From positions 34,725 to 85,490 of the forward strand of contig NZ_NVEC01000076.1 in the NCBI RefSeq assembly GCF_002571225.1: DNA of 50,766 bases, given 5' to 3'. A model generated the notes under the pieces. It was given only the letters and a program-made list of their open reading frames with translations. It was not told the DNA's origin and did no database searches. The DNA comes from Bacillus sp. AFS059628. GTDB taxonomy: Bacteria; Bacillota; Bacilli; Bacillales; Bacillaceae_G. Shown piece by piece: positions 47,270 through 50,766 of the stretch. The translations under genes were made by a program, and so were the position numbers. Each line of letters opens with the position of its first letter. Position 1 is the first letter of the stretch.

Positions 47270-47500
47270 TATTCACCTAACGGGAAAGTAACATATACTG
47301 GATGAAAGCCCTACCTCTCTCTCATCATTACGGTTCCACTGACCGCTCCTTGATTCACTAGTATACCTATAAAGCCTATAATTATAATTTATAGGGTTTG
47401 TTCACAAAAGTTGTTGGTAAGATTACCCGATCTTTCGCAAACTTTTCGTATTATATTTATAAGATTTATTTACTTTACACTAGCTGTAACCGAGACACGA
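47236..47500 (-). ncRNA. Candidate structured non-coding RNA (about 265 nt)
   Basis: A near-consensus promoter (47507-47535) fires into a gap with no credible reading frame, and the ykuS terminator closes it. The minus-strand sequence can fold several local stems: AAAAGTT/AACTTTT enclosing GGTAATCTTACC (about 47446-47405), CCTATAA/TTATAGG (about 47396-47375), CGGT/ACCG and GATGA/TCATC. It does not show the landmarks of tmRNA, RNase P, SRP RNA or any riboswitch I can recognise. No gene follows on this strand, so it is not a leader. Confidence 0.5.
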
Positions 47501-47776: not shown

Positions 47777-48184
47777 TCACTTTTGACGGTTATTTACAAA
47801 TTTATCTACAGTGCTTGGTACAGTATTTAAAGCCTTCTCAATTAAATGTGTACTACTATTGAGGTGCAATACTTGCACACCGTTAGAACCAACTACTAAA
47901 AAAGCAACTGGGCTAATAGAAACCCCAGCCCCGCTCCCGCCTCCAAATGGATGACTTTGTTTGTGCTCTTTATGTTGCCCTTGTCCGTTCTTATGTTTTT
48001 CGGAAATAAAATCACCTTTAAAATCACTTCCGCCAGCTCCAAAACCGAAAGCTACTTGAGATACTGTTAATACTACATTTCCGTCAGCTGTTGAAACCGG
48101 GCTGCCAACAATTGTATTTACATCTACCATCTCTTTTAAATTTGTCATTGCTGTTTTCATTAAATTTTCAATTGGATGTTCCAT
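47777..48184 (-). CDS. gerW: GerW/YtfJ family sporulation protein
   Basis: The product is 135 aa. Start ATG 48184 gives MEHPIENLMKTAMTNLKEMVDVNTIVG, the usual family N-terminus, with AAAGGGTG upstream; the frame is open further but without ribosome sites. VSQVAFGFGAGGSDF and PFGGGSGAGVSISPVAFLVV are the Gly-rich core. In B. subtilis YtfJ (GerW) is made in the forespore and is needed for normal germination. It is slightly shorter than the B. subtilis protein (about 150 aa). It diverges from the gene at 48375. Confidence 0.88.
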   Translation of the reverse strand: MEHPIENLMKTAMTNLKEMVDVNTIVGSPVSTADGNVVLTVSQVAFGFGAGGSDFKGDFISEKHKNGQGQHKEHKQSHPFGGGSGAGVSISPVAFLVVGSNGVQVLHLNSSTHLIEKALNTVPSTVDKFVNNRQK

Positions 48185-48374
48185 TATGTATTGCACCCTT
48201 TCCTCATTATTCTTTTTTATACTTTCCAAAATAGAGGAAGTCATACTAACTTTTACTATTTCAAAAAAACAATCTCCACTTTTTAAATGGATATGACTCC
48301 CTGTACATACTCGGATAAAAAGGAAAAAGAGATACATACTACTATTGAACCTTGTTATGAAAGGAGTCATGACT

Positions 48375-48749
48375 TTGACTGAGAAATTTGATGAGTACAA
48401 AAAAAGAGATAGAATAGATAGTGATTATAGTGACTATAAAGAAGAATATGCAGCTGAAGTTGCACCACAGCGCATTGATTATGATTACGATGAGAAGGAT
48501 CATAAAGATGATGTGAGATCGTCTGCCGCTGGATCAACTGCTGGCTTTATCGCTCTTGCCTTATCTATCTTATCACTCTTTACCTTCCCAACATTATTTG
48601 GCCTTGTTTCTGTATTACTAGGTATTTACGCTTATAATCGCGGAGCTACTGTAACTGGTGGTATCGCTGCGATAGTCGGCGGAATTGCAGCACTCATCGC
48701 AATTTTATTCCGAGTAGCGCTTATCGGATTATTGTTCTCCCTTTTTTAA
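48375..48749 (+). CDS. DUF4190-like membrane protein
   Basis: The product is 124 aa. TTG 48375 is preferred (8 nt from AAAGGAG); an ATG at 48369 is only 2 nt from it. A hydrophilic, acidic, Tyr-rich N-terminal half (EKFDEYKKRDRIDSDYSDYKEEYAAEV) is followed by two transmembrane helices (about 58-120) with LALSILSLFTFPTLFGLVSVLLGIYAYNRG, the DUF4190 pattern. Role unknown. Confidence 0.75.
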   Translation: MTEKFDEYKKRDRIDSDYSDYKEEYAAEVAPQRIDYDYDEKDHKDDVRSSAAGSTAGFIALALSILSLFTFPTLFGLVSVLLGIYAYNRGATVTGGIAAIVGGIAALIAILFRVALIGLLFSLF

Positions 48750-48788: not shown

Positions 48789-50126
48789 TGTAAATACATC
48801 TTCCGATGGATACTTAATTTTTTGTTTTGCTGGTCGCGCTAAAGAAAAGACAAGTGTTAACGGTCCAATTAATCCGCAAAACATAACAAACATAATAATA
48901 CATTTTCCAAACGCTGATAACTTTGCAGTAATCCCCATCGTTAATCCTACTGTACCAAATGCTGAAATTGTTTCAAATAGTAACTGAATAAAACTGAAGT
49001 TTTCTGTTAGCATTAATACAAATACTGCTGCAAAAATGAGAATTTGACTGGCAACAGCAATCGCTAACGCTCTCGTTACTGTCGACATTTTTATTGTGCG
49101 CTGAAATAATACAATTTCCTCTTTCTTTCTAAAAAAAGAAAGGACAGATGTAACTAAAATAACAAACGTTGTTAATTTAATCCCTCCACCTGTTGATACA
49201 CTTCCTGCACCAATAAACATTAAAACCATCGTAAATAATATAGATGATTCTTCCATCCCCCCGTAGTCAACTGTATTAAATCCAGCAGTACGAGGAGTAA
49301 TACCTTGGAAAAAAGAAGCCCATAACTTTTCATTTAAAGGTAAATTCCCTAACGTCTTCACATTATTATATTCCAATACAAAAATCACAATCATCGCTAT
49401 CACATTTAGCGCTACTGTTCCAACAATCATAATTTTGGAATGAAGCGATAATTTCCGAAAACTACGGCTATACCATATATCAATTAATACAGTAAAACCG
49501 AGACCACCTATTACGATTAAAGAGCAGATCCCAATATTAATAATAGGATCTCCTACATACCTCGTTAAATTATCTGGCCATAGTGCAAATCCGGCATTAT
49601 TATAAGATGCGATTACGTGAAAAATACTATAATATATACCTTTTCCAAAGCCAAACTCTGGAATAAAGCGAAATGATAAAAAGATAACTCCAATCAACTC
49701 AATACAAATTGAAAATATAAAGACACGTTTTACTAATTTTACGAGACCACCTATATTCGTCTGATTAAATGCCTCCCCAATTAATAAGCGATGGCGTAAT
49801 CCGATTTTTTTGCCTAATACCCAAACAATTAAAATGGCAATCGTCATAAGACCTAGACCACCTGTTTGAATTAAAAACATAATTACAATTTCGCCAAACA
49901 TCGTAAATGTACTTGCGGTATCTACTACTCCTAATCCTGTTACAGTTGCTGCTGACGTTGCCGTAAAGAAAGCATCTACCCAACTAATATGTACTTTCGT
50001 TGCCAATGGTAACTTTAATAACAAACCGCCAACCACAATTAAGCAGAAAAAACCTAATGCTAATATTTGTGGTGGATTTAATCGTATAAAACGATTATAC
50101 AGCCCTTGTCTTTTTGTTACTTCCAT
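48783..50126 (-). CDS. Ktr/Trk-type potassium channel subunit (KtrB/KtrD-like)
   Basis: The product is 447 aa. I use ATG 50126 after AAAAGGGAGTTAGTGAAT. It has four repeated M1-P-M2 units typical of the SKT superfamily, with selectivity loops TSAATVTGLGVVD, NNAGFAL, TPRTAGFNT and SAFGTVGLTMG. It needs a cytosolic KtrA/KtrC RCK subunit, which is not encoded in this window, as is usual for KtrD-type orphans. It imports K+ with Na+. Size is the same as KtrB (445) and KtrD (449), so the paralogue cannot be decided. I see no c-di-AMP riboswitch in its leader. Confidence 0.88.
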   Translation of the reverse strand: MEVTKRQGLYNRFIRLNPPQILALGFFCLIVVGGLLLKLPLATKVHISWVDAFFTATSAATVTGLGVVDTASTFTMFGEIVIMFLIQTGGLGLMTIAILIVWVLGKKIGLRHRLLIGEAFNQTNIGGLVKLVKRVFIFSICIELIGVIFLSFRFIPEFGFGKGIYYSIFHVIASYNNAGFALWPDNLTRYVGDPIINIGICSLIVIGGLGFTVLIDIWYSRSFRKLSLHSKIMIVGTVALNVIAMIVIFVLEYNNVKTLGNLPLNEKLWASFFQGITPRTAGFNTVDYGGMEESSILFTMVLMFIGAGSVSTGGGIKLTTFVILVTSVLSFFRKKEEIVLFQRTIKMSTVTRALAIAVASQILIFAAVFVLMLTENFSFIQLLFETISAFGTVGLTMGITAKLSAFGKCIIMFVMFCGLIGPLTLVFSLARPAKQKIKYPSEDVFTG

Positions 50127-50216
50127 ATTCACTAACTCCCTTTTTCCCCTCATAACTAAAGGCTTATAAGAAACCTTACATAGCGGGATAAACCTTATAC
50201 TCTTATAATATAGTTG

Positions 50217-50245
50217 AGCATAATCCTTTTTTTCATAGTTTTCAA
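50217..50245 (-). promoter_or_regulatory. Possible promoter of the potassium transporter gene
   Basis: TTGAAA (50245-50240), 17 bp, TATGCT (50222-50217) on the minus strand. The leader to the ATG at 50126 would be about 85 nt with no recognisable riboswitch. Confidence 0.4.
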
Positions 50246-50353
50246 CTTTTATTTATATTCGCACTTCATTTCCTCTTATAAATGAAGCCTTCTATTCTCT
50301 TTCTTTACTCTATAACCCTTACAGCAACAACTTCATATCTATCATTTCTCAAA

Positions 50354-50407
50354 TTCTCATACCTTTCACTCTATGTTCACACCCTGGTCACATCCACCTT
50401 TTATAGT
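50354..50407 (+). promoter_or_regulatory. PhoP-box-like array and -10 box, unit 1
   Basis: Four hexamers at exactly 11-bp spacing: TTCTCA (50354), TTCACT (50365), TTCACA (50376), GTCACA (50387). The -10 box TATAGT lies at 50402-50407 and there is no -35 consensus. Direct TTCACA-type repeats with 5-bp spacers, ending about 10 bp before the -10, are the arrangement of B. subtilis PhoP boxes. Confidence 0.6.
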
Positions 50408-50412
50408 ATATG

Positions 50413-50541
50413 TATCGGAGCTGTTCCTCCCTAATTTATAAGACATTCCCCAGTGTCTTGAACAGCTTTCCATCCCTAATTAAATTGACATAAATTGTCC
50501 CCTTCCTTAGGCCATCATTTTCGATGGTCTTATTTTTTGTT
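50413..50541 (+). ncRNA. Candidate C-rich small RNA, unit 1
   Basis: About 130 nt. The outer stem GGAGCTGTTC (50417-50426)/GAACAGCTTT (50460-50469) encloses the inner stem AAGACA (50440-50445)/TGTCTT (50454-50459). Unpaired segments hold TCCCTAATT twice (50428-50436, 50473-50481) plus TTCCCC and TCCCCTTCC, which could pair with ribosome sites. A terminator follows (50510-50541: GGCCATC, loop, GATGGTCT, T-run). There is no credible reading frame. Confidence 0.6.
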
Positions 50542-50563
50542 TACTCTATTTTTTATGGAAAAC

Positions 50564-50617
50564 TTCCTCTCTCTTTCACTCTATGTTCACATCAGGGTCA
50601 CATCTACCTTTTATAGT
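50564..50617 (+). promoter_or_regulatory. PhoP-box-like array and -10 box, unit 2
   Basis: The same design as unit 1: TTCCTC (50564, weak), TTCACT (50575), TTCACA (50586), GTCACA (50597), each 11 bp apart, then TATAGT at 50612-50617. The spacers have changed between units while the repeats have not. Confidence 0.6.
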
Positions 50618-50622
50618 ATATA

Positions 50623-50751
50623 TATCGAAGTTGTTCCTCCCTAATTTATAAGACATTCCCCAGTGTCTTGAACAACTTCCATCCCTAATTAAATTGACAT
50701 AAATTTTCCCCTTCCTTATGCCATCATTTTCGATGGTCTTATTTTTTGTTT
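50623..50751 (+). ncRNA. Candidate C-rich small RNA, unit 2
   Basis: A near-copy of unit 1 about 209 bp downstream. The outer stem is GAAGTTGTTC (50627-50636)/GAACAACTTC (50670-50679), all Watson-Crick. Relative to unit 1, one C-G pair has become T-A by changes on both sides. The two TCCCTAATT motifs, the inner stem and the terminator (50720-50750) are kept. The window ends just after it, so further copies may follow. Confidence 0.6.
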
Positions 50752-50766
50752 ACTCTATTTTTTATG

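What the first reader, a model, noticed from the sequence alone, without database searches (positions are those of the whole stretch)
50354..50766. Tandem pair of structured C-rich small RNAs with covarying stems
Two ~209-bp units each contain a -10 box, a two-tier stem-loop and an intrinsic terminator but no reading frame. Between copies the outer stem changes AGCTGTTC/GAACAGCT to AGTTGTTC/GAACAACT, a compensatory pair change, and G-T pairs become A-T or G-C. This is direct evidence that RNA folding is selected. Unpaired TCCCTAATT (twice per unit), TTCCCC and TCCCCTTCC could bind Shine-Dalgarno sequences, as multi-copy C-rich sRNAs of other Firmicutes do (LhrC family, csRNAs).
Basis: partly seen in the sequence, partly recalled or inferred. 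Interest (0 to 1): 0.85.

Follow-up and report, generated by a model that had tools for sequence, protein, structure and literature searches.

The report
Twin C-rich regulatory small RNA genes
At the end of this Bacillus-like window sit two neighbouring copies of a short gene that probably makes a folded, non-coding RNA able to cover the ribosome-binding sites of other messages, and whose promoter looks as if a signal-sensing two-component system switches it on.

Summary
Two tandem units each carry a -10 element, a two-tier hairpin, unpaired C-rich stretches and an intrinsic terminator, without a conserved reading frame. Both fold far better than shuffles (z -6.3, -6.2). The compensatory change is real, but it is one pair between two copies (chance P = 0.019), and two other substitutions weaken predicted helices: suggestive, not "direct evidence". 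Two of four C-rich stretches prefer translation starts beyond composition (1/60 and 0/60 shuffles as good). New here: no -35, but 11-bp-period repeats TTCACT-N5-TTCACA-N5-GTCACA ending 9 nt before the -10, the geometry of OmpR-family response-regulator boxes and nearly that of streptococcal csRNA promoters (0 of 826 other -10-like sites in the window have as good a triple; only modest when period and position are left free). Best reading: a two-copy, two-component-controlled, Shine-Dalgarno-masking sRNA that works like csRNAs and LhrC but matches no Rfam family. No homologue could be fetched; transcription, conservation, regulator, signal and targets are untested.

The parts
50354..50392 (+). 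copy 1: response-regulator-like direct repeats, 11-bp period: TTCTCA (weak) 50354, TTCACT 50365, TTCACA 50376, GTCACA 50387
   Evidence: binding inferred
50402..50407 (+). copy 1: -10 element TATAGT (within TATAGTATAT), no -35
50414..50538 (+). copy 1: predicted sRNA, about 125 nt (both ends inferred)
   Evidence: start assumed about 7 nt after the -10
50417..50469 (+). copy 1: two-tier hairpin; outer stem 50417-50426/50460-50469, 13-nt bulge CTCCCTAATTTAT 50427-50439, inner stem 50440-50447/50452-50459, loop CCCC 50448-50451
50473..50506 (+). copy 1: unpaired C-rich stretch, TCCCTAATT 50473-50481 and TCCCCTTCC 50498-50506
50509..50538 (+). copy 1: intrinsic terminator, 8-pair stem 50509-50530 and T run
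50564..50602 (+). copy 2: direct repeats TTCCTC (weak) 50564, TTCACT 50575, TTCACA 50586, GTCACA 50597
50612..50617 (+). copy 2: -10 element TATAGT
50624..50746 (+). copy 2: predicted sRNA (both ends inferred)
50627..50679 (+). copy 2: two-tier hairpin with the compensated pair T50631-A50675
50682..50715 (+). copy 2: unpaired C-rich stretch, TCCCTAATT 50682-50690 and TCCCCTTCC 50707-50715
50720..50746 (+). copy 2: intrinsic terminator, 6-pair stem 50720-50737 and T run

Best explanation
Two tandem genes for nearly identical trans-acting sRNAs of about 125 nt. A phosphorylated OmpR-family response regulator binds the 11-bp direct repeats, stands in for the missing -35 and recruits RNA polymerase (inferred from sequence; PhoP is my first candidate, ResD or a CssR/LisR-like regulator are alternatives). 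Each RNA folds into a stable 5' hairpin and ends at its own terminator (predicted, with strong fold statistics). Its unpaired C-rich stretches pair with Shine-Dalgarno regions of several mRNAs and block translation (inferred; a pairing preference is shown by computation). The duplication raises dose and lets the copies diverge slightly. It works like csRNAs and LhrC; it is not a sequence member of either.
For: Fold z -6.34 and -6.18. Two terminator-like sites in the 613 bases scanned, both at the ends of these units. The hairpin keeps its energy (-17.6, -17.7) through 3 substitutions and 1 deletion; random mutants average -12.6 and 6.9% do as well; a two-sided compensated pair arises in 1.9% of random placements. 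Triple repeat at period 11 ending 8-12 nt before the -10: 41 and 18 of 20000 shuffles as good, 0 of 826 other -10-like sites in the window. csRNA genes were sought as TTTAAG-N5-TTTAAG, then 10 nt, then TATAAT (PMC3091779, passages); here TTCACA-N5-GTCACA-N9-TATAGT. PHO boxes are pairs of 11-nt direct repeat units, with similar features in B. subtilis (PMC4415409, passages). C-rich regions 1 and 4 prefer 45 translation-start regions of this window over mid-gene stretches more than their shuffles do (1/60, 0/60; region 4 of copy 2, 1/60). LhrC4 binds a G-rich site before the lapB start codon through three UCCC sites (PMC4132741, passages).
Against: No transcript data and no homologue. With period (9-13) and position left free, the promoter repeat is only moderately unusual: 233 and 91 of 4000 shuffles, and 86 of 1678 real 60-mers of the window, are as good. 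The apical loop and C-rich region 3 show no clear preference for translation starts (11/60, 7/60). The best duplexes with 46 window genes lie within the range of shuffled segments. Two one-sided substitutions weaken a minor helix and the terminator base. The window ends at 50766, so a gene governed by copy 2 cannot be excluded.
Confidence: 0.62

Rival explanations
1. Cis-acting leaders: one or both units are structured 5' regions with terminators (attenuators) of a gene beyond the window's end, and the RNA senses a ligand or protein.
For: Window ends at 50766, right after copy 2's terminator; hairpin plus terminator is also the plan of leaders such as the 6 T-box, lysine and SAM leaders that Rfam finds elsewhere in this window.
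Against: Copy 1 is followed by a promoter and copy 2, not by a gene; no antiterminator alternative in the predicted folds, where hairpin and terminator are separate; no Rfam family matches.
Confidence: 0.15
2. An sRNA pair as described but with an ordinary housekeeping or other promoter: the hexamer repeats are a by-product of C/T-rich sequence and no response regulator is involved.
For: Repeat is only moderately unusual when period and position are free; the two copies are duplicates, so they are not independent evidence.
Against: With period and position fixed to the OmpR-class expectation, 41 and 18 of 20000 shuffles and 0 of 826 other -10-like sites match; no -35 found.
Confidence: 0.25
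3. A structured interspersed repeat or inert tandem duplication with no regulatory role (Bacillus cereus group genomes carry families of short structured repeats; recalled, not from a call).
For: Two near-identical copies; covariation rests on a single two-sided pair; genome-wide copy number could not be counted.
Against: Each unit has promoter element, fold and terminator in working order; changes in the main hairpin break no pair; no further copy in the window.
Confidence: 0.12
4. A gene for a small peptide or type I toxin.
For: 8 frames of 20-50 codons overlap 50300-50766.
Against: Start at 50410 is lost in copy 2; in the frame ending at 50434/50644 seven substitutions give five amino-acid changes (by eye).
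Confidence: 0.03

Closest known systems
csRNAs of streptococci (CiaRH-dependent sRNAs)
   Same: Intergenic, 51-202 nt, direct-repeat response-regulator box with N5 spacing about 10 nt before a -10, stem-loops, unpaired stretch complementary to Shine-Dalgarno sequence and start codon, terminator, 2-6 genes per genome; csRNA1-1 and 1-2 are in tandem in S. sanguinis (PMC3091779 and PMC8186281, passages).
   Different: Repeat is TTCACA-like, not TTTAAG; CiaRH is reported as not found outside streptococci; direct sequence comparison with csRNAs was not made.
LhrC1-5 of Listeria monocytogenes
   Same: Multicopy, UCCC sites in stem-loop and single-stranded stretch, needs a two-component system, LisRK (PMC4132741, passages).
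   Different: No Rfam family matches here; no UCCC in the terminator loop; the LisR-responsive element includes sequence upstream of -53, here the repeats span about -60 to -22.
RoxS/RsaE of Bacillus and Staphylococcus
   Same: C-rich regions that can pair with ribosome-binding sites; activated by ResD/SrrAB (PMC4409812, passages).
   Different: No Rfam family matches here; conserved ResD-like site around -65 there; no tandem copy is known to me (recalled).

Membership tests
LhrC family | Match to an Rfam covariance model (that LhrC is in Rfam is recalled) | tested here: not met
   No family at E <= 1 on 50300-50766
[quoted passage not shown] the terminator loop is ATTTTC. Two of three sites
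LhrC family | Dependence on LisR | not testable with these tools
   needs a regulator mutant
csRNA family | CiaR box NTTAAG-N5-TTTAAG upstream of the -10 | tested here: not met
   Repeats read TTCACT/TTCACA/GTCACA with N5
csRNA family | Unpaired region between two stem-loops with anti-Shine-Dalgarno and CAU sequence | tested here: met
   50470-50508 holds CATCCCT, GACATAA and TCCCCTTCC; region 4 prefers translation starts (0/60), region 3 not clearly (7/60)
RoxS/RsaE | Match to an Rfam covariance model (that RsaE is in Rfam is recalled) | tested here: not met
OmpR-class two-component-controlled sRNA (functional kind) | Direct repeats at 11-bp period in place of a -35 | tested here: met
   with the weaker free-period result; sequence evidence only
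OmpR-class two-component-controlled sRNA (functional kind) | Loss of expression without the regulator | not testable with these tools
   needs experiment

The most novel reading that the evidence does not exclude
A so far undescribed, tandem-duplicated sRNA family of the Bacillus cereus group, switched on by an OmpR-family two-component system through PHO-box-like 11-bp repeats, that masks many Shine-Dalgarno sites at once: an independent invention of the csRNA/LhrC design, possibly the RNA arm of the phosphate-starvation response.
Probability: 0.4. Interest if true: 0.6.

Novelty: new member of a known kind. Interest (0 to 1): 0.45.

Why it matters
Little is known of sRNAs in the Bacillus cereus group: a 2021 paper states that only one had been described in detail (PMC7843513, passage). 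A two-copy, C-rich sRNA driven by a two-component system would suggest that streptococci, Listeria and this group reached the same design separately, and would give a direct handle on which regulon uses it.

Tried and rejected
Homologues. The one genome-contig scan gave 3 stretches (Nostoc, a groundwater MAG, Cyclobacterium). Whether Bacillus cereus group genomes are held in that collection I could not tell, so the lack of a Bacillus hit means little. Plasmids and phages: no match. Viral contigs: searches found 0 stretches; (TrkH protein) had 4 pattern matches, none confirmed; one search gave 48 stretches and one search gave 3. I read by eye the flanks of the 51 stretches: none continues the similarity. 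The covariance model was run on the window and on 7 of the 56 loci then held, the 3 among them: the two copies at E 1.8e-33 and 1.5e-32 (they built the model), next best E 0.5.

Coding was rejected (by eye). Targets: best duplexes with 46 window genes lie within the range of shuffled segments. The start region of the adjacent, divergent trkH (GAGGGGAAAAAGGGAG) pairs with C-rich region 4 of copy 2 at -14.2 kcal/mol; an idea only. Print: 10 searches; no listed title or abstract start is about this RNA; two of them returned no paper. Passages of seven papers were seen; no paper was read whole.

Full report
What is there. The last 413 bases of the window hold two contiguous direct repeats, 10 substitutions and one gap apart over 195 columns. 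Each holds, in order: hexamer repeats at an 11-bp period, a -10 element TATAGT (within TATAGTATAT), a two-tier hairpin, a single-stranded C-rich stretch and an intrinsic terminator. The window's genes (a TrkH-family potassium transporter and a GerW/YtfJ sporulation protein by NCBIfam; amino-acid operons recognised by eye) look to me like the Bacillus cereus group; that name is recalled from gene content and comes from no call. No genome is held for the window.

Is it more than chance? The predicted RNAs fold with z -6.34 and -6.18, and 0 of 200 shuffles fold as well for either. A terminator scan of 50154-50766 finds 2 sites, those of the two units, with 0.2 expected. TCCCTAATT occurs 5 times in the window, 4 of them in these units, with 0.63 expected.

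The covariation. The outer-stem pair C50421-G50465 is T50631-A50675 in copy 2; a G.U becomes A-U; another G.U becomes G-C through a 1-nt deletion. The hairpin energy is unchanged (-17.6, -17.7). In 200,000 random placements of 10 substitutions on the unit, a two-sided compensated pair in the main hairpin arose in 1.9%; among placements with at least 3 changes at its paired positions, 5.4% broke nothing and 1.4% did so with a compensated pair. Random mutants with 3 substitutions and 1 deletion reach the observed energy in 6.9%. Against it, G50497 to T removes a weak 4-bp helix and G50510 to T shortens the terminator stem. I read this as suggestive support for selection on the fold, not proof.

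The promoter. The promoter scan lists no -35/-10 pair for either unit. Instead the hexamers TTCACT, TTCACA and GTCACA follow each other at 11-bp steps, preceded by a weaker TTCTCA or TTCCTC. With the period fixed at 11 and the last hexamer ending 8-12 nt before the -10, 41 and 18 of 20,000 shuffles are as good, and 0 of 826 other -10-like hexamers of the window. With period 9-13 and position free the signal is modest: 233 and 91 of 4,000 shuffles, and 86 of 1,678 real 60-mers. I fixed period and position after seeing the sequence, guided by the OmpR-class pattern; and the consensus counted is taken from these sites, so that count is partly circular. PHO boxes are made of 11-nt direct repeat units, with similar features in B. 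subtilis, and the Streptomyces coelicolor motif is GTTCACC (PMC4415409, passages). CiaR boxes of csRNA promoters have N5 spacing and were sought 10 nt before the -10 (PMC3091779, passages); here the gap is 9 nt. An OmpR-family regulator is the best guess; PhoP is the first candidate on sequence resemblance alone.

What the RNA could do. Starts of 45 window genes were picked partly by Shine-Dalgarno strength. C-rich regions 1 and 4 pair with these starts, relative to mid-gene stretches, better than shuffles of themselves (1/60 and 0/60; region 4 of copy 2, 1/60); the apical loop and region 3 do not clearly (11/60, 7/60). In a scan of 46 window genes the best duplexes lie within the range of shuffled segments, so no target is named. 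Binding of UCCC-type motifs to Shine-Dalgarno sequences is the assumed way of working of C-rich sRNAs of low-GC bacteria, proven in target binding for some, such as FsrA and RsaE (PMC4132741, passages).

Comparison with the known. No Rfam family matches at E <= 1. csRNAs and LhrC share the plan (several copies, two-component control, stem-loop, unpaired C-rich sequence), and S. sanguinis has a tandem csRNA pair (PMC8186281, passage). Defining features are not met: no TTTAAG box, no UCCC in the terminator loop, no model match. It works like them and is filed as a new member of that functional kind, not of those families.

Limits. Whether the group's genomes are in genome contigs is unknown. Transcription, regulator, signal, targets and anything beyond 50766 remain untested.

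Noticed in passing
47294-47373 +: Rfam BsrC sRNA match, 56.7 bits against a gathering score of 38; another sRNA candidate about 3 kb from the pair.
   Followed up: no
50300-50337: TTTCTTTACTCTAT and AGCAACAACTTC upstream of copy 1 resemble the end and the 3' stem arm of the units; perhaps the remnant of an older, decayed unit.
   Followed up: partly
50746-50766: The window ends in the same sequence that follows copy 1 and leads into copy 2, so a third unit may follow outside the window.
   Followed up: no
50120-50153 -: The start region of trkH (GAGGGGAAAAAGGGAG) is G-rich and pairs with C-rich region 4 of copy 2 at -14.2 kcal/mol; a possible neighbouring target.
   Followed up: partly
48345-48749 + and 47777-48400 -: A 134-aa hydrophobic ORF and the 5' end of the longest ytfJ frame overlap on opposite strands, probably because the longest frame starts too far upstream.
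   Followed up: no
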